From the NCBI GenBank assembly GCA_963971225.1, contig OZ020268.1, positions 59,519,900 through 59,583,899 of the forward strand: 64,000 nt of DNA, read 5' to 3'. The notes beneath the pieces are model-generated. The model saw nothing but the letters and a program-made list of their open reading frames with translations, ran no database searches and was not told the DNA's origin. How positions within the stretch are numbered: position 1 is the first letter of the stretch; every line of letters starts with the position of its first letter. This DNA is from Melieria omissa (taxonomy: Eukaryota; Arthropoda; Insecta; Diptera; Ulidiidae). The position numbers were made by a program, and so were the translations under genes. Shown here in pieces: positions 20,482 through 55,880 of this stretch.

Positions 20482-20995
20482 AGTTGACGGACGGCACCAA
20501 TATTTCCGGATGTTGACATTAACACTACAGTTAATGTCAACAACCATACAATGTTGCTGAGGAGCGCGGTTTTTCGGCTGTTGACACTAACTCTTCGGTT
20601 AATGTCAACAACCATACAATGTTGCTGAGGAGCGCGTTTTTTCGGCTGTTGACACTAACTCTTCGGTTAATGTCAACAACCATACAATGTTGCTGAGGAA
20701 CGCACTTTTTCCGGCTGTTGGCATTGGCACTTCGGTTAATGTCAACAGCCTTATAATTTCGGCAAAAGAACGCTGGCAATGCGTCTGCGACTAATTTCGC
20801 AACGCATTGCGGCGTCCGCTCTTTTCGGACAGAAACGCTGACAGGGCTGCAAGCATCGATTTCGCAATATCGATTACGCAGCGCTGTTCAGCGACGGGCT
20901 TGGGCTAGTTTGTAAGAAGATTTTAGCTGGTAGAGTCAGTTTTAAGTTGAGCTTTGAACAATAAAGAACGCGTTCCGATCGAGTCGGAACTAACT
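20482..20995 (+). repeat. 5' LTR of errantivirus
   Basis: The LTR begins AGTTGACGG and ends GGAACTAACT, with inverted termini AGTT...AACT. It holds a 68-bp tandem array near its 5' end and a polyadenylation signal AATAAA at 20,960. It is identical to the 3' LTR at 27,943-28,456. Confidence 0.95.
20512..20760 (+). repeat. 68-bp tandem repeats with palindromes inside the LTR
   Basis: Copies start at about 20,541, 20,609, 20,677 and 20,746, so the period is 68-69 bp. Each junction carries an inverted repeat. The first is a perfect 12-bp stem, GTTGACATTAAC (20,512) with GTTAATGTCAAC (20,530), and the next ones enclose a CTCTTCG loop with one mismatch. The same array is in the 3' LTR (27,973-28,221). 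It could bind a host factor or form an RNA hairpin; the role is unknown. Confidence 0.9.
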
Positions 20996-21012
20996 GGCGC
21001 CCGAGCGAATTT
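20995..21012 (+). other. primer-binding site
   Basis: TGGCGCCCGAGCGAATTT starts with the last base of the 5' LTR. TGGCGCC... is the form expected for pairing with the 3' end of a tRNA. The first ten bases resemble lysine-tRNA-type sites, but I cannot confirm the tRNA. Confidence 0.75.
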
Positions 21013-21269
21013 GAACGTGTGTCCGGCTACTATAAGTCCTTAAGTAGTACAAGTAGCCAGGACAGTCGTGTCGTGCGTAACCAAAAATACTCAAGTAGTG
21101 TCGGTGACTCGCGCGATCTGAAAGTGTGGAGAAGGAGGCTCCTTAGTAGCCGTAAGCGAAAAGGGTGCGTCGAACGCAAGCCGCTCCACCGCGGAAATTA
21201 ACAGATAAACTGAGAAAGTGCAGTGTACGAAGCAATAAAACCAAAAGAGTAATCTAAAATAAAACGAAA

Positions 21270-21706
21270 GCAGCAGCGAAGCAGTAGTGACAGCAAAAAG
21301 ACAGCGGCGGTAGCAGCAGCGAAGCAGTAGTGGCAGCAAAAAGGCAGCAGCAGCAGCAACAGCAACAGCGAAGCAGTAGGCAGCAGCGAAGCAGTAGTGA
21401 TAGCAAAAAGACAGCGGCGGTAGCAGCAGCGAAGCAGTAGTGGCAGCAAAAAGGCAGCAGCAGCAGCAACAGCAACAGCGAAGCAGTAGTGACAGCAAAA
21501 AGACAGCGGCGGTAGCAGCAGTGAAGCAGTAGTGGCAGCAAAAGCAGCAGCAGCAACAGCAGCAGCGAAGAAGCAGCAGCAGCGAAGCAGTAGTGGCAAC
21601 AAGAAGACAGCAGCGGTAGCAGCAGTGAAGCAGTAGTGGCAGCAAAAAGACAGCAGCAGCAGCAAAAAAGCAGCAACAGCGAAGCAGTAATAGCAGTCAA
21701 AGGCAG
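21270..21706 (+). repeat. CAG-rich tandem repeats in the errantivirus leader
   Basis: The 5' untranslated leader has repeated blocks such as GCAGCAGCGAAGCAGTAGTG, GCAGCAAAAAGGCAGCAGCA and GACAGCGGCGGTAGCAGCAG over about 430 bp. The minus strand gives long cysteine/leucine-rich frames, which are an artefact of the CAG composition. In gypsy the matching leader region holds an insulator. Whether this array does anything similar is unknown, and it lacks the gypsy insulator sequence as far as I can see. Confidence 0.85.
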
Positions 21707-21707
21707 C

Positions 21708-21736
21708 ATGAAGCTGGACGCCGTTATTTTGTAAGT
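21708..21736 (+). promoter_or_regulatory. candidate env leader exon end and splice donor
   Basis: An ATG at 21,708 opens a short frame that runs into a strong donor, TTTT/GTAAGT, with the intron starting at 21,731. Exon phase is 2. In errantiviruses env is made from a spliced RNA. This donor is in phase with the acceptor at 26,408-26,409 and would supply the start codon that env lacks. The pairing is an inference. Confidence 0.6.
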
Positions 21737-21930
21737 TTGAATCTAAAGAAAAGAAATTAATTGAAGAATTCCAATCCATAAGAAGTGCTTGGAGCAAATT
21801 ATTCAAACAGGGAAAAGATCAAAATAAAGTAAAAATCAAAACGAAAAAATAAAATACAAGAATTAAGAGTTAAGTTAAGGAAATTGGATAAAATTCGGTC
21901 GCGAACTTTATTTACGAAAAACCAATAATA

Positions 21931-23271
21931 ATGGCAAACCCCAACAATCTGATCCGTCCTCCAATCCTTCATCCACCTATAAATCCTAATGCCAATCCTG
22001 GTGGCCCACCACCACAACAAATGAACGAAATAGAGCTTAGAGCGCTCATTTCGCGAATAGCTCTTGAAACTTTTAATAGTCAGGGACCGCCAATCATTCA
22101 GGCTACGCTTAATCCGAATGCAAGCTTCTCGAATGCAACAGACCAAGCAATAGACGAAAGACACCTCGCTGACTTGTCTGATTTAGATAAGGTACCGGAT
22201 GTAGTCAAATGCCTCAGGGAATTCTCGGGGAAACAGGGAGAATTTAACTCATGGAGGAAAAGTGTCGACAGAATCCTTAGGATCTATGAGCCATTTAAAG
22301 GGACACCGAAATATTTCGGAATCCTAAACATTATTAGAAATAAGATCGTGGGTCATGCGGACACAGCTTTGGAGTCTTATAACACTCCACTTGACTGGCA
22401 GGCAATTTCTAGATGCCTCACACTTCACTACGCCGATAAGCGTGATGTGTCAACTCTCGAATACCAGATGACTTGCCTCGTTCAGGGTAGATCCACAATC
22501 CAGGAATTTTACCAGGCGGTGTATTCCCATCTTTTACTTATATTGAACAAGCTTGGAAGCTTAGATGTCGGTATGGAAGCCCTGAGTCTCCTTACACAAA
22601 CTTATAGGGAGAAAGCCTTGGACACTTTTGTCCGAGGGTTGAACGGCGACCTGTCTAGGTTGTTGGGTATGAGAGAGCCGGCGGATTTACCACAGGCTCT
22701 TCATTTGTGCCTGAAACTCGAAAATCAGAGGTTCCGCACCAACCACGCGCAGGGTCAAAACAACCATCAACGGCAGTACCGAATGCCGCCGCCAATACCA
22801 CAAATGATTAATAGCCCGCAGAGGGATAGACAATTATACCCATTTTATCCACAACTAGCGCACATACCAAACCCGCAGAATCGCGTGTTTGCAAGGCAAC
22901 CTTATCAACACCCAAGGCAGCCACCTCCGCGTCCTACTACTTCCAAACCCCCACCACCCCCTGAACCGATGGAAGTTGACGAGAGCATTCGCTCTAGGCA
23001 AATCAACTACGCAAACAGACCGCAGGGTAATCGGTATTTAGGAAAGCGGCCACCTCTCCCATTATCACAACAAAATGTTCGACCAGGCAAGGAGCAACGC
23101 ACTTTCCATATAGACACGGAGTCAGAGGAGCCTTACGACTGCAACGCATTAACGGCAGAAGAGGGCCAGGCTTACGACCAGACATTAAACGAATACTTGT
23201 CTTCTATCGAAACTTGTGCCGAAGATTACGAAGAAACTATCGAATTTAGTGACATCCATTTTTTAGGATGA
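21931..23271 (+). CDS. gag: errantivirus Gag
   Basis: 446 residues from the ATG at 21,931. The central part (FSGKQGEFNSWRKSVDRIL, STLEYQMTCLVQGRSTIQEF, REKALDTFVRGLNGDLSRLL) is the capsid-like region of the 17.6/gypsy branch. It is followed by a proline-rich segment (residues about 280-360) and an acidic C-terminus. There is no CCHC zinc knuckle, which is normal for errantivirus Gag, and a basic or proline-rich tail may bind RNA instead. The gene is intact. It ends in TGA at 23,269, overlapping the pol ATG at 23,268 by four bases (ATGA), with pol in the -1 frame. Gag would form the particle that packages the genomic RNA in the cytoplasm. Confidence 0.93.
   Translation: MANPNNLIRPPILHPPINPNANPGGPPPQQMNEIELRALISRIALETFNSQGPPIIQATLNPNASFSNATDQAIDERHLADLSDLDKVPDVVKCLREFSGKQGEFNSWRKSVDRILRIYEPFKGTPKYFGILNIIRNKIVGHADTALESYNTPLDWQAISRCLTLHYADKRDVSTLEYQMTCLVQGRSTIQEFYQAVYSHLLLILNKLGSLDVGMEALSLLTQTYREKALDTFVRGLNGDLSRLLGMREPADLPQALHLCLKLENQRFRTNHAQGQNNHQRQYRMPPPIPQMINSPQRDRQLYPFYPQLAHIPNPQNRVFARQPYQHPRQPPPRPTTSKPPPPPEPMEVDESIRSRQINYANRPQGNRYLGKRPPLPLSQQNVRPGKEQRTFHIDTESEEPYDCNALTAEEGQAYDQTLNEYLSSIETCAEDYEETIEFSDIHFLG
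23259..23265 (+). promoter_or_regulatory. -1 frameshift slip site at gag/pol junction
   Basis: The bases T TTT TTA sit in the gag frame as (CA)T-TTT-TTA, the X XXY YYZ form needed for -1 slippage. They lie three bases before the gag stop codon, and the -1 frame is pol. U UUU UUA is a known efficient slip heptamer in retroviruses. The ATGA overlap three bases further on offers termination-reinitiation as an alternative. Confidence 0.7.
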
Positions 23272-26200
23272 GCGACTCTTCGCTCCCTTACTTTGAATGT
23301 AAAACCGAGAGCGGAGAGACACTAAAATTCCTGGTAGATACTGGGTCAAGCAAGAACTACATCCAGCCAAATCTTGCGAGGAAAACCTATCACAACGCCA
23401 TTCCCTTTTTCGCCAAATCTGTAGCAGGCGACATTAAAATACAGGAACATACCTTCATCAACTTATTCAACCTAGAAAATAAACTTAAATTTTTTGTTAT
23501 GCCATCCCTCAGGTCATTTCACGGCATCCTAGGAAATGACAGTCTCAAAGAATTAGGCGCAGTAATCCACGCAGGCAAAAACTACATGATTTTAAAGAAT
23601 GGTTCTAGAATAAAAATCAAACAGTTATCCACCCAGTCCGTGAATCTACTGAAGGACGACAAACTTACGAATGAGCAAACAGACGTAATGGGGACACTGA
23701 TAAACAAGTTCCCAACACTTTTCTCTGAGCCCGATGAAAAGCTCACCTATACCACAAAGGTGGTCGGGGAGATTAGGACTACTACGGATTCCCCAGTTTA
23801 CAGTAAATTCTACCCATACCCCACAGCACTAAAGCAAGAAGTCGAAAGGCAAGTTCAGCAACTGCTTAATGATGGTATAATCAGACCTTCTAGGTCCCCC
23901 TACAACTCTCCGGTCTGGATTGTCGACAAGAAGCCAGACTCGCAGGGCAACAAGCAATATAGAATGGTAATTGACTACCGTAAGCTGAATTCTCTCACAA
24001 TTCCGGATAGGTATCCTATTCCAGAAATATCTGAAGTAGTATCGCAATTAGGGGACTGTAAATATTTTTCGGTCCTCGACCTCAAGAGTGGGTTCCATCA
24101 AATACCACTGAAACCCTCTGATATCGAAAAGACGGCCTTTTCGATAAATAATGGTAAATACGAGTTTACTCGATTGCCATTTGGGTTGAAAAATGCCCCT
24201 TCGATTTTCCAACGGGCCCTGGACGATATCCTCCACGACTACATTGGCAAATCATGTTACGTGTATATTGATGACATTGTCATCTTCAGCAAATCAGAGG
24301 AAGAGCATAAATGCCACATCGAAAACATTTTTAGAACACTCCAGGAAGCTAATATGAAGGTCCAATTGGACAAGTGCCATTTTTTTAAAGAGGAGGTCGA
24401 GTTCTTAGGTTTTGTCATTTCAAAGGCAGGAATCAAAACCAATCCGAAAAAAGTGGATACTATCATCAATTTTCCGTTGCCCAAAACAATCAAAGAATTA
24501 CGTTCATTTCTCGGCTTGTCAGGATACTATCGTCGTTTTATAAAAGACTATGCGAAGCTGGCCAAGCCTTTAACAACACTCCTAAGAGGGGAAGAAGGTC
24601 GTATGTCAAAAAGAATGTCATCAAAAATTTTCATAGACTTGAATACGGAGGCTGCAAATGCCTTTAATAAGATAAAAAATTCGCTAGTCTCAGAAGACGT
24701 CTTACTCTCGTATCCGAACTACAACGATCATTTCGAGTTGACGACGGACGCATCGGAATTTGCTTTAGGTGCGGTCCTTTCACAAAATAATAAGCCTATC
24801 ACGTTTATCTCGAGAACTCTTAGCAGGACTGAGGAACACTATGCTGTAAACGAGAAAGAGATGCTCGCGATCATCTGGGCCCTGAACTCTTTGCGCAATT
24901 ACCTTTACGGTTCTGCTAAGGTCAACATTTTTACCGACCATCAGCCTCTTACATACGCCTTAAGTAACAAAAACAATAACAGCAAAATGAAGCGCTGGAA
25001 GGCGGTGTTAGAGGAATACAACTATGAACTCTTTTACAAGCCAGGTACTAGCAATGTAGTAGCAGACGCTCTTTCCAGAATACCACCCCACTCCCCAATA
25101 AACACAATGTCGGGAATGACTCACAGCGACGAAAGCTCAGGCCAGAAGCTCATTGACATTGTCAAAGCACCTATAAACGTATTCAAGAATCAAATCATTT
25201 TATGCACCGATTCGGAATCAACTTATAAATTCGAGATCGTTTTTCCCACATTACACCGCCACACTATTACAGAGCCCGAGTACACTACGGGAAAGCTTGT
25301 CTCGCTTCTACAGAAATTTTTAAACCCTTCCGTTATAAATGGTATTAAAGCTCCGGAATCCCTGATGGGAAAAATTCAAGAAATTTTCCCAGATAACTTT
25401 GCTAAATACAAAATTAGATTTGCACGCCTCCAGGTAAAAGACATCAAGGATGAACGACAACAGGAGCAGATAATTATAGAAACGCACAAAAGAGCACATC
25501 GAAACGGAAAGGAAAATAAAACCCAGATATTGGAGGAATACTACTTCCCTGGTATGAACAGTAAAATCAATAGAATTGTCAAGCAGTGTGCGGTTTGCAA
25601 ACTTAATAAGTACGATCGGCACCCAATGAAACCGGAGTTAAAGGAGACCCCCATTCCCACGTATCCTTGTCAAATCCTTCACATAGATATCTATAGAACT
25701 GAGAACAAACTCGTTCTTACGGCAATAGACAAATTTTCGAAATACGCTCAGGCTAGAATCATCAAATCAAAAGCCGTTGAAGACATAAGAGAACCCCTTC
25801 GAGAAATTCTTTTCTTATTCGGAGTCCCGAAGATGGTCGTATTCGACAACGAAAAATCGTTTAACTCTGCTACAATTACGTTTCTTTTAAAGGATCAATT
25901 AGGAATCGAAATTTACACATCCCCACCATATACGAGTACAGTGAATGGACAAGTAGAGCGGTTCCATTCCACGCTTACGGAGATCATGCGTTGCATTAAA
26001 GCGGAAGATATCAACAGAACATTCCAGGAACTATTAGAGAGATCGGTGTACGAGTATAACTTTTCAATCCATAGCACAATAGGGAAAAAACCACTAGACG
26101 TATTCTTTGGACGAACAGCTAACATAGATCCCGAAACGTACGAGAAAACGAGACAAGACAACATTCAGCGATTAAAGAATAAACAACAAACTGACTTAGA

Positions 26201-26390
26201 GAACCATAACAAAAATCGTCAACCGATTAAGGAATACAAACCAGGGGAGACTATCTACGTTAGAATAAACAAACGATTAGGAACCAAGCTCTCGCCAAAA
26301 TTTAGGAAGGAAATTGTTAAGGAAGATAAGTCCACCACTGTTCTTACTGAGTCAGGAAAGGTTGTTCATAAGAGCAACATCAAGAGCTAA
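23268..26390 (+). CDS. pol: errantivirus Pol (protease, RT, RNase H, integrase)
   Basis: 1,040 residues counted from the ATG at 23,268; the true product may start as a Gag-Pol fusion. Domains in order are: aspartic protease with DTGSS (D24); reverse transcriptase with YIDD at 333-336; RNase H with TTDASEFALGAVL (D494); integrase zinc-binding HKRAH (H740/H744) and CAVC (C774/C777); and a catalytic triad D807, D860, E897, the last two 36 residues apart. No stops or missing catalytic residues are seen. It copies the RNA into DNA primed by a tRNA and integrates it. Length and order match the 17.6/297/gypsy group. The 3' end precedes env by only a few bases. Confidence 0.95.
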   Translation: MSDSSLPYFECKTESGETLKFLVDTGSSKNYIQPNLARKTYHNAIPFFAKSVAGDIKIQEHTFINLFNLENKLKFFVMPSLRSFHGILGNDSLKELGAVIHAGKNYMILKNGSRIKIKQLSTQSVNLLKDDKLTNEQTDVMGTLINKFPTLFSEPDEKLTYTTKVVGEIRTTTDSPVYSKFYPYPTALKQEVERQVQQLLNDGIIRPSRSPYNSPVWIVDKKPDSQGNKQYRMVIDYRKLNSLTIPDRYPIPEISEVVSQLGDCKYFSVLDLKSGFHQIPLKPSDIEKTAFSINNGKYEFTRLPFGLKNAPSIFQRALDDILHDYIGKSCYVYIDDIVIFSKSEEEHKCHIENIFRTLQEANMKVQLDKCHFFKEEVEFLGFVISKAGIKTNPKKVDTIINFPLPKTIKELRSFLGLSGYYRRFIKDYAKLAKPLTTLLRGEEGRMSKRMSSKIFIDLNTEAANAFNKIKNSLVSEDVLLSYPNYNDHFELTTDASEFALGAVLSQNNKPITFISRTLSRTEEHYAVNEKEMLAIIWALNSLRNYLYGSAKVNIFTDHQPLTYALSNKNNNSKMKRWKAVLEEYNYELFYKPGTSNVVADALSRIPPHSPINTMSGMTHSDESSGQKLIDIVKAPINVFKNQIILCTDSESTYKFEIVFPTLHRHTITEPEYTTGKLVSLLQKFLNPSVINGIKAPESLMGKIQEIFPDNFAKYKIRFARLQVKDIKDERQQEQIIIETHKRAHRNGKENKTQILEEYYFPGMNSKINRIVKQCAVCKLNKYDRHPMKPELKETPIPTYPCQILHIDIYRTENKLVLTAIDKFSKYAQARIIKSKAVEDIREPLREILFLFGVPKMVVFDNEKSFNSATITFLLKDQLGIEIYTSPPYTSTVNGQVERFHSTLTEIMRCIKAEDINRTFQELLERSVYEYNFSIHSTIGKKPLDVFFGRTANIDPETYEKTRQDNIQRLKNKQQTDLENHNKNRQPIKEYKPGETIYVRINKRLGTKLSPKFRKEIVKEDKSTTVLTESGKVVHKSNIKS

Positions 26391-26393
26391 TCT

Positions 26394-26409
26394 TACCCCT
26401 ATCTTACAG
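26394..26409 (+). promoter_or_regulatory. env splice acceptor
   Basis: A pyrimidine-containing tract TACCCCTATCTTACAG just after the pol stop ends in AG at 26,408-26,409 and opens directly into the env frame. Confidence 0.65.
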
Positions 26410-27910
26410 AATCATATCACCCCTTCTCATCATCTTGGCGAGCGAGGTGAAGATTTTCAACTACACCCTTTCCCACCTTATTACGCTAAACAATGGAGTT
26501 GGAAAAGTGCAGGACGGTATCTTCAAGATCGTTCATGTCATTAAGTTGAACCAGTACGAATCCTTCATCGATAAGGTGCGGAACTACACCCAGCAGAGCA
26601 TCCCCAAGAACAACATCCTATTCCCACTCCTCATCCAGGAAATCGACCAAACATCCCAGATCTTTACCGCCATACAACCGAATGAGCCATCGAGAAAGAA
26701 ACGAGCCTTGAATATTCTGGGGACAGCCTGGAAATATATCGCGGGGTCACCGGACCACGACGATTTCCAGCTAGTTTTAGATGTACTAAATGAAACAATA
26801 AGTAATACTAATAGGCAGGTTATTATAAACGAAGCTCTAATGGCAAGAATTAATAAATTGACTACGATGACTAATGATATAAGTAACGCCATACGCAAAG
26901 ATAGCAACATTATGAGCGAGGCGACATTAGATATCCAAACTAGGTTAAGATTGGTAAAAGAAGAATTGGTAAACATTAAATACGCCATACAATGGGCGAA
27001 GAATAACATACTCAATTCAATGTTACTAAACAAAAGAGAAATGGAATTAGCATTAAGAAAGTTAAAAGAGGAAAACATGTTATTCACTTCCGATGAGGAA
27101 GCCCTCGAATATGCTGATATCAAAATCTTGTACGGAGATAAGACCCTATTGTACGTCATCCAAATCCCGCTCACAAGCAAAGAAAATTATATTAGTATTA
27201 CTGTCAAACCGGTAATAAGAAATAACAGAATTGTAAACGTAAAGTATAAGCAGTTATTAAGAAATAATGGAACAACTTTAGGTGTATTAAGTAATTGTGT
27301 AACCATTAATAGTATAAGAATATGTAAGAAAGCCCAAGTAGTCGACATATCTAGTGACCCATGCGTACCAAGACTGTTGGACGGACTTAATTCGTCGTGT
27401 CTGCTAACTCACGGATACCACTTACCAAGGTTAGAGGAAATTTCTTCCGGTGTAATCCTGTTGAACGACTTCCATGGTACAGTCAATAACCAAACAATGG
27501 GGGGAACATTGCTAATTAAATTTTATAATTCCACTCTTAAAATTGATAACACGACTTACCGAAACCTAGAGGCACCCCTCATGGAAGCCAACCCTCCAAT
27601 GGTGCAAATGACTCCCCAAGAGGAAGGCTTCCTTAACTTACTTTCTCTGGAGCAGCTGAACCAGCTCCACCTCAATAACACTAAAAAAATCAGCTCCCTA
27701 AGGTCGGCATCGACAATAAACACGTATCTCACTATTTCATCCTCAATGTTGTTCATCGTCTGTCTGATCATAATTAAAATCTGCTCTAGAAGTAGCACAA
27801 AAGTGGTTCTCCAACCACTAAACCCGAATCCCATGCCGGTCGCGCACGTGCAAACGTCGGTAACAGCTAGACCATTGCATCAAAAAATCAGCGACCTACC
27901 CTACTTTTAA
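26410..27910 (+). CDS. env: errantivirus Env glycoprotein (second exon)
   Basis: The env frame has no ATG at its start; the first conventional option is a TTG at 26,435. Directly upstream is an acceptor, CTATCTTACAG, with the exon starting at 26,410, so the start codon probably comes from a spliced leader exon. The frame is open for about 500 codons. It begins with a hydrophobic stretch compatible with a signal peptide. It has a furin-type RKKR (residues 87-90 counted from the TTG) followed by a glycine-containing segment, several N-x-S/T sites, and one strong membrane segment near the C-terminus (SSSMLFIVCLIIIKI) before a short basic tail. This is the layout of errantivirus Env. The gene is intact; infectivity is not shown by sequence. 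Confidence 0.88.
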
Positions 27911-27931
27911 CGATTGGGGACAATCGTTTTT

Positions 27932-27942
27932 AAGGGGGGAGG
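27932..27942 (+). other. polypurine tract
   Basis: AAGGGGGGAGG lies immediately before the 3' LTR, where plus-strand DNA synthesis is primed. Confidence 0.92.
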
Positions 27943-28456
27943 AGTTGACGGACGGCACCAATATTTCCGGATGTTGACATTAACACTACAGTTAATGTCA
28001 ACAACCATACAATGTTGCTGAGGAGCGCGGTTTTTCGGCTGTTGACACTAACTCTTCGGTTAATGTCAACAACCATACAATGTTGCTGAGGAGCGCGTTT
28101 TTTCGGCTGTTGACACTAACTCTTCGGTTAATGTCAACAACCATACAATGTTGCTGAGGAACGCACTTTTTCCGGCTGTTGGCATTGGCACTTCGGTTAA
28201 TGTCAACAGCCTTATAATTTCGGCAAAAGAACGCTGGCAATGCGTCTGCGACTAATTTCGCAACGCATTGCGGCGTCCGCTCTTTTCGGACAGAAACGCT
28301 GACAGGGCTGCAAGCATCGATTTCGCAATATCGATTACGCAGCGCTGTTCAGCGACGGGCTTGGGCTAGTTTGTAAGAAGATTTTAGCTGGTAGAGTCAG
28401 TTTTAAGTTGAGCTTTGAACAATAAAGAACGCGTTCCGATCGAGTCGGAACTAACT
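27943..28456 (+). repeat. 3' LTR of errantivirus
   Basis: 514 bp, identical to the 5' LTR, including the 68-bp array and AATAAA at 28,421. It is followed by the TATA duplication. Confidence 0.95.
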
Positions 28457-41211: not shown

Positions 41212-41216
41212 CGGCG

Positions 41217-41244
41217 CACAGTGTTGCGAGTAGTGACAAAAATG
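41217..41244 (+). other. 12-RSS-like left terminus
   Basis: Heptamer CACAGTG (41,217-41,223), spacer of exactly 12 bp TTGCGAGTAGTG (41,224-41,235), nonamer ACAAAAATG (41,236-41,244). The heptamer equals the vertebrate recombination-signal consensus and the nonamer matches ACAAAAACC at seven of nine positions. Confidence 0.8.
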
Positions 41245-42719
41245 CCAAAATGCAACTGTAAAAGCGCAAAAATCTGAATACGAGGTTTTGTTGGAAATAC
41301 TTCAGTTAAGAGAAATCCGAAGTTTTATGAAAAAATATTGGATAACATAGAAGTTATGAGCTCTTAAAGTACGCTCTTCCAGCGTTGAAAAAAAATTGTG
41401 TACAAACAGCAAATTTTTGCTTTGACTTTGAGGTTGAATATTTTAAAATAAATTATGAGCAGGTTTCTAAAAGTTACTATTGTCGTAAGTTTTATATAGT
41501 CTAGGTCTGACAAGACCAACATTTTGCAGATTACTCTCACCTATGAGCAGTACCGTTATGATGAAAATTAAGTAAAGAAAGCGACGGAATAAAAAGTGAG
41601 TTCAAATTTTAAAAGTGATTTAAAAAAAAACGTTAAATATCACTTTTGAAATTTTTTGATATTTTTATTTGGCAAGTATGTGGATTATGCTTTACAATTT
41701 TTAGCTGCGCATATTTGCGCGAATGGAAGTTATTGGCATTTTACGGTGAAGACTTGAGTGCAAATTTGCGATATTTTCACAGTTTGGTTGAAAGCCAATA
41801 GCAATCGGTCAATTAATGCTCTGCTGATGATGGAAAAATTTGTTGAAGATAGCTTCGGAAAATCAATTACGATTACCATTATATTCGAAATAGAGGGGTT
41901 AATAAAGTTTCGACAGTACTTTGATTTTTTTTTCGTACAGAACCAAAAGTTGACAACCGTACTACTTCAATTGTTTGGGAGGCGCCCTCTGGGGGTGAAT
42001 TTTTGAACTTTAATTAATTTTGTATTTGTGGCATTCACGAATGTTGACGATTTTTTAATAAATCATTCAAATCGGTTAAGTACTTTGCCAGATACGATGT
42101 TTCTTCGCTTACTTTACTACATTTACAAGTGTGGAGCCAGTTCCATTGAAAATTACTAGTTTTGTATGGCAGCCACCTTAAGAGTTGGATGTAGCGGTTA
42201 GGTGTGTATAGAAAAAATATTCGAAAGGGAAAATAAATTGGGGTCAGTCTTACATATGGTACGTCTGGGACCAACCTGAGAGCAGCGGGAGCCCACTTTA
42301 TAAAAACGATGGTTTTGTATGGGAGCCTCATTAAGGGTTGGAGATAGGGGGTAGGTATGTTCGAAAGAAATATTCAGGAGGAAAAATTAGTGGGGGTCAG
42401 CCTAACATTTTAACCCTCTAAGAGCAATTTCTGAGCAGCGGTGGAGCACTTCATCGCGATTTTATTTTCAATCACTTTTGAAAAAGCGCATTTTATCTAT
42501 ATACACATTTATAAATAAATTTATATTAAAAAACCAATATTTTGAATGTATCTTTTATGAACTGAGATAATTTTCATTGTTAATACAAAGTTTTTTCAAA
42601 TCCGTTTGTATGGGAGGTAGTCGAAGTTTCCGTCCGATTTCATTGAAATTTTGCACAGTAAGTTCTTTACTCATACAATAACTGTATACCAAATTCCATT
42701 TATATACGACCACTCCTTC

Positions 42720-42758
42720 TATTTTTGTCACTCCGCTATATGAACTCGCAACACTGTG
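42720..42758 (-). other. 23-RSS-like right terminus
   Basis: Read on the minus strand: heptamer CACAGTG (42,758-42,752), a spacer of exactly 23 bp (42,751-42,729) that begins TTGCGAGT like the left spacer and ends AGTG, then nonamer ACAAAAATA (42,728-42,720). Relative to the left end, 11 bases are added in the spacer while heptamer and nonamer are kept. Confidence 0.8.
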
Positions 42759-42948
42759 CGGCGTGAACACGAGACGATCAGCGAGCGTAATACATAACAA
42801 TCAACCACTGACACCTTACACCGAGCAATTATACACTCATCACACAAATAAACATTTATCACAACATTTTTGAACTTAACCCTCAAAACCACACACTTTT
42901 ATATACTGTACATACATCCATGTTCACATTTACATAACAGTTGGGCTG

Positions 42949-45524: not shown

Positions 45525-46245
45525 TTTAAGTGCATAACCCTAAAAATTTTGGGGCTAGGGAGGGGCTAAATGGCATCTCATCGAGGTCAAAGTTCACAAA
45601 ATAGCTGGGAAATTCGACAAATTGCTCCACAGCTTGTCAGAAGCTGCTCTTAGAGGGTTAAAATTGATGACCGACCCCTCTAGCTTGCCTTACTGAACAT
45701 TTCATTTAAACATACTCCCCCCCCATCCCCAACCCTTAACGGGGCTCCCATACAAACTGGTCGTTTTTATAAAATAGGCTCCCATTGCTCCCAGATTGCC
45801 CCCAGATGTATCAAATGTATGGCCGACACCCATTTGTTTTCTCTTCCGAATGTTTCTTCCAAACATACCTACCCGCTAACTCCAAGTCTTAAGGGGGCTG
45901 TTATACAAAACTGGCCATTTTCTATGCCATTGGCTCCCCACTTGCAAATGTAGTAGTTAAGTAAGCGAGAAAGCATCGTATCTCGGAAATTACTGAACCG
46001 ATTTCAATGATTTATTCAGCGATCGCCAACATTCTTGAGTACAAAAAATACAAAATTAATTAAGGTTCAGAAATTCACCACCAGAGGGCGTCCCCCATAC
46101 GATCGGATTTGTGGCGTTGTCAACTTTTGGGTTTCTACAAAGCAAAAATCAAAATGTATTGTCAAAACTCCATTAACCTCCCCATTTTGAATATAATTGT
46201 AACTTTAGATTAGTGTTTCATTCAGGTTCAGAGGGCGTGTATAGA
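45525..46245 (-). repeat. inverted copy of the 41.2-42.8 kb element interior (copy B)
   Basis: Segments such as CTCTTAGAGGGTTAAAAT, TTAACGGGGCTCCCATACA, TTCCAAACATACCTACCCGC and GGGGGCTGTTATACAAAACT are the reverse complement of sequence at 41,980-42,470. CACAGTG ends and a duplication are not found here. The copy is old and diverged. Confidence 0.75.
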
Positions 46246-48867: not shown

Positions 48868-49812
48868 ACGCTGCTGCTGCTGGCACCGCGCGTGGTGGCT
48901 AGGATGAGACTGCCGCGAGCGCGTGCTGGTGTGGTCAAGCTGGTGCTCACGTGGCTGGCTGCTGCTGGCACCGCGCGTGGTGGTTCTCCGGCAACTTCTC
49001 GAGCGCGTGCTGGTGCGGCCAAGCTGGTGCTCACGTGGCTGGCTGCTGCTGGCACCGCGCGTGGTGGTTATCAGGCAACTTGTCGAGCGCGTGCTGGTGC
49101 GGCCAAGCTGGTGCTCACGTGGCTGGCTGCTGCTGCTGGCCCCGTGCGTGGTGGGTGGCTGCTGCTGCTGCTGGCCCCGTGCGTGGTGGCTAGGAGGAAA
49201 CTTCTCGAGCGCGTGCTGGTGCGGCCAAGCTGGTGCTCACGTGGCTGGCTGCTGCTGCTGGCACCGCGCGTGGTGGTTCTCCGGCAACTTCTCGAGCGCG
49301 TGCTGGTGCGGCCAAGCTGGTGCTCACGTGGCTGGCTGCTGCTGCTGGCCCCGTGCGTGGTGGCTAGGAGGAAACCTCTCGAGCGCGTGCTGGTGCGGCC
49401 AAGCTGGTGCTCACGTGGCTGGCTGCTGCTGCTGGCACCGCGCGTGGTGGTTCTCAGGCAACTTGTTGAGCGGGTGCTGGTGCGGCCAAGCTGGTGCTCA
49501 CGTGGCTGCTGCTGCTTGCACCGTGCGTGGTGGCTATCAGGCAACCTGTTGAGCGGGTGCTGGTGCGGCCAAGCTAGTGCTCACGTGGCTGCTGCTGCTT
49601 GCACCGTGCGTGGTGGCTATCAGGCAACTCCCGAGCGCGTGCTGGTGCGGCCAAGCTGGTGCTCACGTGGCTGGCTGCTGCTGCTTGCACCGTGCGTGGT
49701 GGCTATCAGGCAACCCCCGAGCGCGTGCTGGTGCGGCCAAACTGGTGCTCACGTGGCTGGCTGCTGCTGGCACCGCGCGTGGTGGTTCTCAGGCAACTTC
49801 CCGACCGCCTCG
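48868..49812. repeat. GC-rich minisatellite, ~84-87 bp units, about ten copies
   Basis: The word CTGGTGCTCACGTGG recurs about ten times between 48,940 and 49,750. Each unit also has GGCACCGCGCGTGGTGG and CGAGCGCGTGCTGGTGCGGC. Because most units are multiples of three, long frames open on both strands, the longest about 385 codons at 48,757-49,914. They read as tandem low-complexity peptides with no domain. I treat the array as non-coding. G+C is far above the surroundings. Confidence 0.9.
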
Positions 49813-50547: not shown

Positions 50548-51739
50548 ATGGTTAAACTCGAGCAGCTGAAGGTGGACCAGCTGAAGAAGGAGCTGGCTGC
50601 CTGAAATTTTCCGACTGCTGGCGGTAAGGTGGAGTTGCAGTTGCGCTTGTGAGAGACGTGTGAGGCACGAGGCGTCGATTGGGCTGCGCACGAGTTCGGA
50701 ACGCAGAAGCTAGAGGCGTCGGCCAAAGTTGAAGAATCGCCTGCGGGTGCTGCGTCGATGCAAAGTACGGCTGCAGCGGCTGCGCCACCACAAGCAATGG
50801 ACATGAGCCAGCTTATGGTTGCAATGAGAGGCATGTTTCAGGAAACTTCTGCGAAAATTGAGAATTTCAGTCGTGAAAATCGCGAAATGTCGGCGCAACT
50901 GGCAGCGAAACTGGAAACTACGAATCAGGAAATTTCGGCAAAAGTTGAAACTACGAATCAGGAAATTTACGCAAAAGTAGAAACTGCGAACCGAGAAATG
51001 GCGGGAAATTCTGCGGGCATAGAGCAGAAGGTGGAGGAAATTTCCGATAGGCTGAACGTGAAAGTTGAGCATCTCGAGACGCGAATGGAAAATTGGGACA
51101 AGCGAGTTGACGACCTGGATGATTCCCTGCACAAACGAGTTGACAGTCTGGAGGATTCGGTGAACAGAAAAATCGACGAGCGGCTTAGAGATGTACAGCC
51201 ACGAGAATGTTTGCCGCCGGTGCCACCAGAACAGAAGTGCCTACTATGATGGTGCTACGCCGCACAGTGGCTCAATTTGTCATTTTAGGTTGCAAAATTA
51301 ATAACTTCTGAACGAATAGAGATAATTGGAAATTTTTGCTGTTGATTAGAAATTCATCAGGCTATTGTATTCCAAAAAATAATCTCAATCGAGGTACAGG
51401 GTGCTACGTAATACTTTGTCAAAGTTCGGCTTACTGTAAATAAGAATAATGCGAGCAACAATGATAAGGTTTAGGTGCAAAGTTAATGAAAATTCATTAA
51501 AAAGATGCAAAGTAATAAGAAATTTAAGAAGTAAGTTGAAAGAGCCAAATTTTGAAGATAACAATTAATAAATTTCGCTTTCAAAATTAGAACCAGAACT
51601 CGAAAAATTTACATAAAAAGTCAATTTTTCTTTCGTTTTTTTATGACTATATTTGATGGTAGCACTTTTAATACGACCCGGGCTTGCTGGTAAAACTGCT
51701 TCCATTATAACGCCTTTCATTTTCTCCTGATCCTTATTT

Positions 51740-51865
51740 TATTTTATGATCAAAGCTTCTGACAGCTGGGTGGTAGTTATTGTTGCCGTTGCCTCCATAA
51801 GCTTCTTTTTTTAGTAATTGACGCACAGTCCTGAATTGACTTTTTCGGCCTTCCTTTTGCCGCCT
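51740..51865 (-). pseudogene. possible Transib transposase N-terminal remnant
   Basis: The minus strand reads KGRPKKSIQDCASITKKEAY near 51,855-51,790. A GRP-K-S basic motif of this sort occurs near the N-terminus of Transib transposases. Only about 40 residues are readable and no catalytic residue is present, so this is tentative and leans on position inside an element with Transib ends. Confidence 0.35.
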
Positions 51866-51962
51866 TTTATGTCGATGGCTGATCATCGCTTATGTTACAT
51901 GCATCTCCTGCATCGAAGTAAATTGTTTTTTTTCAACCACTCCTCATTATTCTGGACAACCT

Positions 51963-52412
51963 AGGTTAGGTTAGGTTAAAGTGGCTGTCTTGGCCTGGGA
52001 CTTGCCGACACACGTAGGCCACGGAATGGGCCCGTTATGATACCACAAGTTGAAAGGTCTGTTGTACTGCAAGTCGAGAAGCCTATACAAGCCATTTCGA
52101 AGAGTGGATGAACTCAAGCAAGTCTTTGATTCTAGCTGAACTGAGGTCGTTTAAGTTGTCGAAGAAAGGAGATCCTAGGGTTCTCCATCTTCGTCTAGAT
52201 AGAGCCGGACAGTTGCAGAGAAGATGGCTGATAGATTCCTCCTCCTATCATTCTGGCAACTGCGGCAGAAGTCCCATACATTGACGCCCAGTCTGAAAGC
52301 ATGGCGTCCGAAAAGACAGTGGCCAGTCAGGATTGCGACGACCGTGCCAACGTGTTGCCTGCTAAGCGATACAAGTGCTTTTGTTCGCCTAAGATTAAAA
52401 ACAACCTAACCT
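51963..52412 (-). pseudogene. LINE 3' end with (TAACC)n tail
   Basis: The minus strand encodes VAILTGHCLFGRHAFRLGV and FCRSCQN, then after a frameshift HLLCNCPALSRRRW, PFFDNLNDLSSARIKDLLEF and IHSSKWLV with a stop at about 52,083. This is the C-terminal ORF2 tail with its C/H motif seen in insect LINEs. Directly behind the short 3' untranslated region the element ends in TTAACCTAACCTAACC (51,963-51,980). The 5' junction also has AACCTAACCTAACC (about 52,404-52,417), so insertion may have been into, or templated by, that motif. Confidence 0.8.
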
Positions 52413-53035
52413 AACCTAAGTCCTGGATATCGTGTTGTTAGTCGTAGATATGTTGGCTGCAGGCCAACTTCCTTCGACGTAACCAATTTCTTTAGTGACA
52501 GCCAGAACGAACTTCTCCTTTGTCTTCGAAATAGTACCTAAACATTTCAAACAGCTTCGAATTTTTCAAACACATCTTTGTGCTTCTTCTTCGGTTTAGT
52601 TGCAGTGGCGGAGTTGATGTGATGTTTAGTTCAAATTAAATTCGAAACTAACTTTACTTAATCCAAACTCTTTTATTTATAAGTAGGATTTGCATATGCA
52701 TTCAAATAGCAGGTACTAAGCTTCTAGTACTAGCAGGTACCTAAACAGTTGTTAGGTTTTCCCGCGTTGTGGGATTTTTGAACAGCCCCGACACATAAGT
52801 GGGTTTTAGACAGTATACATAGATATAAGTCTGCTTTTTGTTTTTCAATAACTTATTGTTTCATTGGCGCGGTTCAACTCAAAGACTCATTAAAATTAAG
52901 AAAAGAAGGAAAGAAATTAAGAAAAAAAATTTATGCTAGGCACAGTATTAGTATTTTGTTAAAAACAAAAACATTACATCAAAGGATACACGATAGCTGA
53001 TTGCCAGAAATGAAAGCAAAAAAAAGTCGACTTAA

Positions 53036-53727
53036 GGCAGGTTCTCACCTTGTGGGAAAAAAAAAACTAATTTTTTTCCCCTTATCGTGTAGATATATGT
53101 TCCAAAAATGTGCTCCAGAAATTTCAGATCAAAATTTGAAAAATTACAAAAGTTACAGGCCGTTACATTGAGCAGTGTCGAGCACCGGCCGAGCGCGCTT
53201 TAAACTTTAAACGCGTTTTTCTGAGAACCACATTTTCGGACCTAACGGAAGTGATTGAAGGCGGTGGAATGAACCAATCGTCACAAAATTTTTTAAAATG
53301 TTCCTCAGGGTTTTTTTTAATAAACGAACCACGATCAGCCAAAAATATTGAAAATTATTTATTTAAAAAAATAATAAGTGAACAAAAAAATGAGAAAATC
53401 TTAATTTTTTTTAAAACCTCATAACTTTTGTAATTTTGATTTTTTGTTCATGATCTTGGTTCATTCAATAGATAATACGGTACACATTAAGAATGTGTTC
53501 GATTTTTGTGTTTCAGATCACGGGTTTTGACGGAATGCCGCCACTGATGGACGCCCCCTCCCCCCTTTTTTGATTCATTCAATTTGAAAAATTGTACTCT
53601 CTAAATAAATGTGTGTTCATATCCAGAAAAATTTCCAAAATTTTCAGCTTTGTATCTTTAACCGTTTTCTCAAAAAAATTCCTAAAAAAAAGTGCACTTT
53701 TTCGGATCCACAAGGTGAGAACCTGCC
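53036..53727. mobile_element. 692-bp MITE with TTAA duplication
   Basis: GGCAGGTTCTCACCTTGTGG at 53,036 pairs with its complement ending at 53,727. TTAA flanks both sides (53,032-53,035 and 53,728-53,731). TTAA targets are used by piggyBac and Kolobok. No transposase is present. Confidence 0.9.
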
Positions 53728-55152
53728 TTAATATGGAGTTGCAAGCTTGTATCACATCTTAAATTAAGCCAAAATCCAAATTGTCATGCCCTGGTAACGA
53801 TTATAATCGCGTGTAATTGATTCACTATCAAAATCTTGACAAACTTGTTCGAACGCACTCACCCGAAAGCACAAAATTGCGCGAGGTGTCCACAGAAAAA
53901 TTGCTGTAAAATCCAGTCGGGCAAAATCGGGCACCTGATCTCTTCAGGGCAGTACTCACAGAAGACTAGTGAACAATTTTCCCAAAGACGGAACTGTGGA
54001 AAGTATGGCTTTTTTTAAGTCTATCGAAAGTTCAAAAAGTGTGATAAAAACAGTGCTTCAAGTGAGCGCCTATGAAAAGACAACAACAACAACCAACTTT
54101 TTTTTCTATATTTAATTATTTCCTACAAATGCCTTCTTTTACGATGCTGGTGCAAAAAGTTTCAATTAACTTGCTCCTTTCCGTATTTTAAAACTTCAGC
54201 TTTACCGGAAAAGTGCAAATTGCTGATATTATTTCACACTCTAAAAATTGCTCAACTTTGACGGGCTCTACAAGCAAAACTATTTGTCCCATTTAGTTAA
54301 GGTTTTCGGATTTCTTAGGTCCAAGCATTTATCTATCGGACAAGTATAACAGTTTCCCCCAAATCGAACATGACAAAATTGACTTTTGCAACCTGCGTCG
54401 GCAGAATCAGCCACTGTGCGCCGTTCGATACATTTAAACTGCAATTCGACTCAGCTGCTTTGGAAAATCAGTGGACCGATATCAGTAAGGGTCGGAGATT
54501 GGCACTGGCGCTGAAAGGTCCTGCGGCTGTGGTAATGAAATCAGTTCCGGAATGTTCGAGAAGTGATTACGAGGCCATCATGAGAGCGTTGGCAGCGAAG
54601 TACAGCAACGAGCACAACCATACGCTGTACTACTGTGAGCTGAAGAACCGCAGGCAAAGAGCAAACAAGGCGCTGCAGACATATGCAGCAGACATTGAGC
54701 GGCTCGTACCGTTGTGCTACCCGAAATTCGGCGCTGATGATCTCGAGAGGAAGAAAATTTAGTAGTTTATTGTAGGTCTTCATGATCCAGAGACACGTCG
54801 CAGTGCGTTGATGATGGGCAAGCCGACATTTAAGGAGACGGTGACCAGCGCGATGACATATGAGGCGACATGGATTGGGAGCACTCGATATGCATCTGCA
54901 AGGATACGCCAAATTCAGACGGACAACGACGTTGCGATCCAGGCCATAAGCTCTGAGACACCGGGCAGGCCACGGGTGGTCTCCTCTAAAGTTGTTTGCT
55001 GGACATGTGGCAAGCAGGGTCACATATCACGAGACTGCCGTCAACGAAAAACGCGTTCCCGTTCTCGATCGCAATCGCCTGAAGCGAGGAATACTGACAA
55101 TCGAGGCTCAGCCTACAAGCGCAGGGCTGAGAACGAGGAGTCGTTAAACTAA

Positions 55153-55689
55153 AACGGGTCAGCCCAAAGGGGCGTGAGCTGATCCCCACAACCTGCTGCC
55201 CCACCGTCCTTGTCGCACAGCTGAAACAACAACCCAGCAGCTCAACATACGATCAACATACTAAAACAATATCAAAATGTTTTCCATGTTTCAACAATGA
55301 CTCAACATAAGACATCAAATATTAGAAATAAGTTAAAATGAATAAAATATAAATAATTCAACTAAGAAACAATTACATTTCATATTTTACACATCAATAA
55401 ACATTATGAAACAAAATAAAAATAAAACAAACGATTTTTCTTTGAAATATAAGGTAATTTGCACTAAGGTACCCGGGTACCCTGGTCATGGACCCCTGTA
55501 TGCAAAAACATTAAACTCATTTTTTGGTTAATATATTTAACCAAATTTGATAAACTTTTTTCTAGTCTCTAAGTTTAGCCGAAATGTCTGATGATCTGGA
55601 GTTTCATGTTGATATCTTCAATATTATAGGAACAGCAGCACTTTAAAGTTCAAATTGTTACCCAGGTACCCGGTTATGGACCGTAGGGT
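55153..55689. other. AT-rich gap with a direct repeat of TACCCRGGTACCC
   Basis: No gene. GTACCCGGGTACCCTGGTCA near 55,470 and TTACCCAGGTACCCGGTTAT near 55,660 are diverged direct repeats bounding about 190 bp of AT-rich DNA. The first 60 bp after gag may be a last trace of pol. Confidence 0.45.
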
Positions 55690-55880
55690 TAAATGAAATA
55701 TTCAGTAAGGAAAACTAGAGGGGTCGGTCATCGATTTTAACCCTCTAAGAGCAACTTCTGACCAGCTGTGGAGCAATTTGCCGAATTTCCCAGCTTTTTT
55801 GTGAACTTTGACCTCGATGAGACGCCATTTAGCCCACCCTAGCCCCAAAATTTTTTGGCTCATGCACTTTTTTACCAAAC
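55690..55880 (+). repeat. third copy (C) of the 41.2-42.8 kb element family
   Basis: TTTTAACCCTCTAAGAGCAA and flanking words match 42,410-42,450, and are the close complement (about 88 percent) of 45,530-45,720. Only part of the interior is present. Confidence 0.75.

What the first reader, a model, noticed from the sequence alone, without database searches (positions are those of the whole stretch)
41217..42758. Transib element with a natural 12/23 pair of RSS-like ends
Seen directly: CACAGTG, 12-bp spacer, ACAAAAATG at the left; CACAGTG, 23-bp spacer, ACAAAAATA at the right; a perfect CGGCG duplication outside both. Known: V(D)J recombination signals are heptamer CACAGTG, a 12- or 23-bp spacer and nonamer ACAAAAACC, and RAG1 is related to Transib transposases, whose ends usually show 23-type spacing. 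Inference: this insect family may be mobilised by a Transib transposase that tolerates or requires asymmetric 12/23 ends, which bears on where the 12/23 rule came from.
Basis: partly seen in the sequence, partly recalled or inferred. Interest (0 to 1): 0.95.

Follow-up and report, generated by a model that had tools for sequence, protein, structure and literature searches.

The report
Transib-type element with 12/23 ends
A short fly transposon in this window carries end signals spaced like the 12- and 23-base signals of our antibody genes, and nearly all of the other copies examined in the same genome keep that spacing, which gives a clean test case for a spacing pattern already known from a few insect relatives.

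Summary
Of the 40 best-scoring copies (capped search), 35 keep both ends: 34 are 12/23, one 12/25; 5-bp TSDs (consensus CGNCG) are identical in 31 of 35. Genome-wide, the two exact end blocks occur 123 times directly joined (12-type), 0 times 1-10 bp apart and 140 times 11-16 bp apart; of 55 of these listed, 54 are exactly 11 (23-type). All 21 convergent pairs among the first 100 listed ends are 12+23. So this is a non-autonomous Transib-type family with 12/23 ends, not one damaged copy. The genome also holds Transib transposases with open frames (best PDB match HzTransib, 3e-98). The two transposase families whose ends were read have 22-bp spacers at both ends; no transposase with the 12/23 ends was found in the part that could be checked. 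12/23-asymmetric Transib ends are already in print (D. melanogaster Transib5; A. gambiae Transib2, N1-N3): a new, clean member of a known kind. Whether 12/23 is required or only tolerated is untested.

The parts
41212..41216 (+). left target-site duplication CGGCG
41217..41223 (+). left heptamer CACAGTG
   Evidence: no substitution in the 33 complete copies
41224..41235 (+). left 12-bp spacer TTGCGAGTAGTG
   Evidence: no substitution in the 33 complete copies
41236..41244 (+). left nonamer-like ACAAAAATG
41245..42719 (.). interior of the non-autonomous element, no coding sequence recognised; holds a tandem pair of about 143 nt (42159-42301 and 42312-42454, 71% alike)
   Evidence: five frames, no Pfam match; no tblastn match of a Transib transposase here
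42720..42728 (-). right nonamer-like ACAAAAATA
42729..42751 (-). right 23-bp spacer TTGCGAGTTCATATAGCGGAGTG, equal to the left spacer plus the 11-bp block TCATATAGCGG
42752..42758 (-). right heptamer CACAGTG
42759..42763 (+). right target-site duplication CGGCG

Best explanation
The element is one young copy of a multi-copy, non-autonomous Transib-type DNA transposon family in a fly genome, mobilised in trans by a Transib transposase. SHOWN: the ends consist of two conserved blocks, CACAGTGTTGCGAGT and AGTGACAAAAAT, that abut at the left end (12-bp spacer in RSS terms) and lie 11 bp apart at the right end (23-bp spacer); this asymmetry is a family trait; insertions carry 5-bp GC-rich duplications (CGNCG); the genome encodes Transib transposases with open frames. 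INFERRED: the transposase synapses one short and one long end, cuts next to CAC leaving hairpins on the flanks as HzTransib and RAG do (recalled knowledge), and pastes with a 5-bp stagger. INFERRED: the left end arose once from a 23-type end by loss of the 11 bp (about one helical turn) between the blocks, because the two related families whose ends were read have 22-bp spacers at both ends. Whether the asymmetric pair is preferred or only tolerated is open.
For: 34 of 35 two-ended copies are 12/23, one 12/25; 31 of 35 TSDs identical, the other 4 differing at one base. Two pairs of these copies share both flanks, hence 33 insertions; a further pair, L014 and L047, has related flanks. Genome-wide 263 end matches with block gaps of 0-16, reversed control 0: 123 with gap 0, 0 with gaps 1-10; of the first 100 listed, 45 are gap 0, 54 gap 11, 1 gap 16, and 21 of 21 convergent pairs are 12+23. 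The 11-bp block varies in sequence (21 of 54 differ from the commonest form) while its length holds. In 33 complete copies the 65 end sites carry 16 substitutions; random interior windows do as well in 5 of 20000 draws. Diverged two-ended copies still show 12/23 (L087 84%, L089 72-91% in pieces; picked because the blocks matched exactly, the gap being free). Transib transposases with open frames are present (PDB match 6pqn 3e-98).
Against: No transposase was found between 12/23 ends. The two families read have 22/22 ends and other inner blocks. L092 has a 28-bp and L023 a 25-bp right spacer, so the long spacer is not absolutely fixed. A first count of end conservation that still held the five copies lacking an end showed none (54 substitutions, 2341 of 10000 random draws as low); the right end alone is only mildly conserved (38 of 1385 windows as low). 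TSDs are less regular in the 19 two-ended elements fetched by their ends: 11 of 19 identical.
Confidence: 0.85

Rival explanations
1. Founder accident: one ancestral copy lost 11 bp between the two blocks, a spacing-tolerant Transib transposase still moved it, and all copies inherited the 12/23 form without any preference for it. (A sub-reading of the best explanation.)
For: The copies share descent, so constancy alone proves no constraint. The left end equals the right end minus 11 bp. Families A and B are 22/22. In the 11-bp block 36 substitutions against 1 off-length end among 55 listed is not far from the about 10:1 ratio of the whole element (1222 substitutions to 123 indel events).
Against: The short form persists in copies from 1% to about 16% off the majority sequence, and the left end in particular evolves more slowly than the interior.
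Confidence: 0.5
2. An obligate 12/23 rule: the cognate transposase needs one short and one long end, as RAG does but without RAG2. (The other sub-reading of the best explanation.)
For: No 12/12 or 23/23 element among the 21 convergent pairs of the first 100 listed ends or the 35 two-ended copies; gaps of 1-10 bp are absent genome-wide; asymmetric-end Transib families exist elsewhere (PMC8355894, PMC9435367, passages).
Against: Shared descent explains the same facts; two other Transib families in this genome use 22/22 ends; no transposase is tied to these ends.
Confidence: 0.3
3. Cross-mobilisation by the symmetric family A transposase (689 aa, 22/22 ends, same heptamer CACAGTG).
For: Family A has near-identical copies and open frames and shares the heptamer and 5-bp GC-rich TSDs.
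Against: The inner blocks differ (GGTTGCAAAATT against AGTGACAAAAAT) and so do the spacers (22/22 against 12/23). Families C to K were not read and may hold the true partner.
Confidence: 0.15

Closest known systems
Transib families with 12/23-asymmetric TIRs: Transib5 (Drosophila melanogaster), Transib2, N1, N2, N3 (Anopheles gambiae), as listed in the Figure 2 legend of PMC8355894 after its reference 8 (taken to be Kapitonov and Jurka 2005)
   Same: 12- and 23-type spacers on opposite ends, heptamer and nonamer-like blocks, insect host; three are N-named, which usually marks non-autonomous elements (recalled convention)
   Different: Their sequences could not be read here (the 2005 paper is not held; no repeat library was searched), so identity of this family with one of them was not tested. 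Here the two ends are one sequence with a clean 11-bp difference.
HzTransib (Helicoverpa zea; PDB 6pqn and others)
   Same: Same transposase superfamily as the one read in this genome (E 3e-98)
   Different: PMC8289069 describes Hztransib TIRs as symmetric, with little or no nonamer similarity (passages)
Families A and B of this genome (named here)
   Same: Heptamer-like ends, A-rich inner block, 5-bp GC-rich TSD, Transib transposase
   Different: 22-bp spacers at both ends, other inner blocks, code for a transposase
[quoted passage not shown] vertebrate 12/23 RSS
   Same: Two blocks with unequal spacing at the two ends, CAC start, 5-bp GC-rich target
   Different: ProtoRAG uses 27/31 (PMC8289069, passages); RAG works with RAG2, which Transibs lack; no RAG2-like gene was sought here

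Membership tests
Transib superfamily (non-autonomous member) | Terminal CACAGTG-type heptamer, spacer near 12 or 23, A-rich nonamer | tested here: met
Transib superfamily (non-autonomous member) | 5-bp GC-rich target-site duplication | tested here: met
   31 of 35 identical 5-bp TSDs, consensus CGNCG; 11 of 19 in the elements
Transib superfamily (non-autonomous member) | A Transib transposase exists in the same genome | tested here: met
Transib superfamily (non-autonomous member) | An autonomous element sharing these very ends | tested here: inconclusive
   none seen at 65 of 90 typed transposase places; 25 not covered, families C to K not read
12/23-asymmetric Transib families | 12 and 23 (+/-1) spacers on opposite ends, a family trait | tested here: met
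   34 of 35; 21 of 21 listed convergent pairs
System obeying a functional 12/23 rule | 12/12 and 23/23 substrates cut or joined much less than 12/23 | not testable with these tools
   needs an enzyme assay
RAG-like (RAG1L-RAG2L) transposon | RAG2-like gene next to RAG1-like gene | not tested
   no RAG2 search was made; five frames of the element have no Pfam match

The most novel reading that the evidence does not exclude
This family is moved by a RAG2-independent Transib transposase that enforces, not just tolerates, pairing of a 12-type with a 23-type end, so a functional 12/23 rule exists in an insect transposon, next to symmetric 22/22 relatives in the same genome.
Probability: 0.3. Interest if true: 0.8.

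Novelty: new member of a known kind. Interest (0 to 1): 0.5.

Why it matters
Whether the 12/23 rule of V(D)J recombination was inherited from the transposon or added with RAG2 is open. This family offers clean material: two ends identical apart from an 11-bp difference, kept over some 33 checked insertions, in a genome that also holds open-frame symmetric relatives for comparison. The pattern itself is already known from a few insect Transibs, so the gain is in testability and in showing that 12/23 holds across many copies and much divergence, not in the discovery of 12/23 Transib ends.

Tried and rejected
Rejected: (1) a private deletion in one copy: all 36 recognisable left ends have 12 bp. 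(2) L078 (3939 bp) as the autonomous partner: it is the 1.5-kb element with an insert whose 769-aa frame I read as a LINE-type reverse transcriptase (read by eye, no family search). (3) C1:60080623 as the partner, because a 23-type end lies 2.6 kb away: L105 shows two separate neighbouring insertions, each with its own TSD pair. (4) A transposase remnant inside L073 (tblastn E 0.002): not supported by a profile built from 74 Transib proteins; the profile matched L105 and L072, in L072 at the edge of the locus outside the element, besides its control loci (number of proteins). (5) Translating the right end to find copies through the protein database: no candidates. (6) Scans of viral and prokaryote contigs for the ends: 0 and 0. 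(7) Strong length constraint on the 11-bp block: suggestive only.

Full report
What is there. Window 41217-42758 begins CACAGTG TTGCGAGTAGTG ACAAAAATG and ends, read on the other strand, CACAGTG TTGCGAGTTCATATAGCGGAGTG ACAAAAATA; CGGCG stands on both sides. The shuffle control expects no such site. Aligned to each other the two ends match in all 27 shared bases, and the only difference is an 11-bp block. Five frames of the interior have no Pfam match, and a Transib transposase from this genome has no tblastn match in the element (whole window).

Is 12/23 a family trait? The own genome (490 Mb, 164 contigs) was searched with the whole element: 42 rows, which are 40 copies including the window's; only 40 of 2959 first-look candidates were scored, so these are the best-scoring copies and the number is a lower bound. 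All 39 others were fetched with flanks. Left ends: 36 recognisable, all with 12-bp spacers; right ends: 39 recognisable, 38 with 23 and one with 25 (L023). Two-ended copies: 35, of which 34 are 12/23. TSDs: 31 of 35 identical, the remaining four differ at one of five bases; consensus CGNCG. The five copies lacking an end show unrelated sequence there. Two pairs (L012/L013, L018/L022) share both flanks and count once each; L014 and L047 have related flanks. So 32 or 33 insertions carry this architecture.

Genome-wide the pattern of the two exact blocks with 0-16 free bases between them matches 263 times, the reversed control 0. Exactly 123 have no gap and none has a gap of 1-10, which leaves 140 with gaps of 11-16. 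Of the first 100 listed rows 45 have gap 0, 54 gap 11, and one gap 16; among them 21 convergent neighbours within 6 kb all pair a 12-type with a 23-type end, 1091 to 3939 bp apart. These copies are not independent tests of a rule, because they share descent. The 11-bp block has 16 sequence forms in 54 ends, with 36 substitutions; at the element's own ratio of 1222 substitutions to 123 indel events some 3 to 4 length changes would be expected there and one was listed, which is only suggestive. Gaps of 17 and more were not counted.

Age and constraint. Copies differ from the majority sequence by 0.8 to 10.2% (38 copies). Twenty further regions were fetched by their ends, 14 of them because both ends already matched the pattern. 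Nineteen have two ends: 17 are 12/23 (including L087 at 84% and L089 at 72-91% identity to the majority sequence), L092 has a 28-bp right spacer and a 12-bp left one with an altered heptamer, and L096 has a 23-type end and a left end whose nonamer lost one A, which the script left unscored; in L097 only a 23-type end was seen. Their TSDs are identical in 11 of 19. In 33 complete copies the 65 end sites carry 16 substitutions, as few as 5 of 20000 random interior draws; the first 19 bases of the left end carry none; the right end alone has 12, as few as 38 of 1385 interior windows. A first version of this count, which still held the five copies lacking an end, showed no conservation (54 substitutions; 2341 of 10000 draws as low), because foreign sequence was aligned to the ends.

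Who moves it? The RAG1 profile PF12940 matches 40 times in this genome over its cut-off and in none of 14 control genomes (68 of 166 candidates scored). L098 holds a 689-aa open frame whose best PDB match is HzTransib at 3e-98, with RAG1 chains from 4.4e-7 upwards in E-value; Pfam gives RAG1 at 4e-8. Searches with this protein and with a more distant relative list 70 and 68 matches, many with unbroken frames (65 of 3254 and 67 of 2562 candidates scored). Ends could be read for two families. Family A: CACAGTG, 22 bp, GCAAAATT or GCAAAAGT; both ends were read in two decayed copies, L105 (TSD CAGCG on both sides) and the window (51263-54418), and only the right end in the open-frame copy L098. 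Family B: CACTATG, 22 bp, GCAAAAAT, TSD CGTCG on both sides in L104, which has an open frame. Neither shares the inner blocks of the 12/23 family. Of 90 transposase places typed (not every row), 65 lie where the list of exact 12-type ends is complete; two come within 8 kb of a listed end, one being the L105 neighbourhood of two separate insertions and one (C4:3022757) 6.1 kb from an element whose interior faces the other way, judged from coordinates. 23-type ends were compared on C1 alone. The partner is unidentified; further families seen could not be read.

The host.

What is known. PMC8355894 (passages, section 6) lists Transib5 of D. melanogaster and Transib2, N1, N2, N3 of A. gambiae as having 12/23 asymmetries and builds an origin hypothesis on them. 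PMC9435367 (passages) states that one Transib subgroup always has asymmetric TIRs and the other has both kinds. PMC8289069 (passages) says most Transib families have symmetric TIRs and that ProtoRAG prefers its asymmetric 27/31 pair. PMC7204232 (passages) proposes that invertebrate RAG-like elements are relatively insensitive to asymmetry. The 2005 paper is not held. A search for Transib with Tephritidae listed one paper, on hAT elements in a drosophilid (listing only); I make no claim that this family is absent from print or from repeat libraries. The 12/23 Transib end is thus not new; this family is a further member with an unusually clean architecture and many checked copies.

Verdict. Observation confirmed, and its main refuter failed. 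Interpretation partly supported: 12/23 ends that evidently support transposition, partner unknown, requirement untested.

Noticed in passing
51263-54418 (TSDs 51258-51262 and 54419-54423, CGCCG): A second, decayed Transib copy in the same window: both ends have 22-bp spacers (CACAGTGGCTCAATTTG.. and CACAGTGGCTGATTCTG..), 91-95% alike to the family A element of L105 at its ends, with transposase fragments in between.
   Followed up: partly
20482-28456: A Gypsy-type element with gag, pol and a Gypsy-envelope-like frame (PF07253, 1.1e-88) and 514-bp LTR stretches identical to each other, so probably inserted recently; TATA on both sides.
   Followed up: partly
41873-42451 and 45620-46202; 55683-55869: The interior of the 12/23 element shares about 580 bp at 78% with a nearby stretch in which I saw no Transib ends, and about 88 bp with a third place; the element may have captured another repeat, or the others are end-less relatives.
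   Followed up: no
48870-49808: A minisatellite-like array with units near 85 bp and long overlapping open frames on both strands.
   Followed up: no
L105:72-4766: A 12/23 element and a family A 22/22 Transib inserted about 170 bp apart, each with its own TSD; the transposase part has a twin with the same number and kind of stops at C4:28567859.
   Followed up: partly
G000 C1:75711096, C2:52209349, C3:54556342, C4:45917051 and others: Further Transib transposase matches at about 38-48% identity to the query with unbroken frames of 560-839 aa, which look like several more groups in one fly genome; the grouping is by eye.
   Followed up: no
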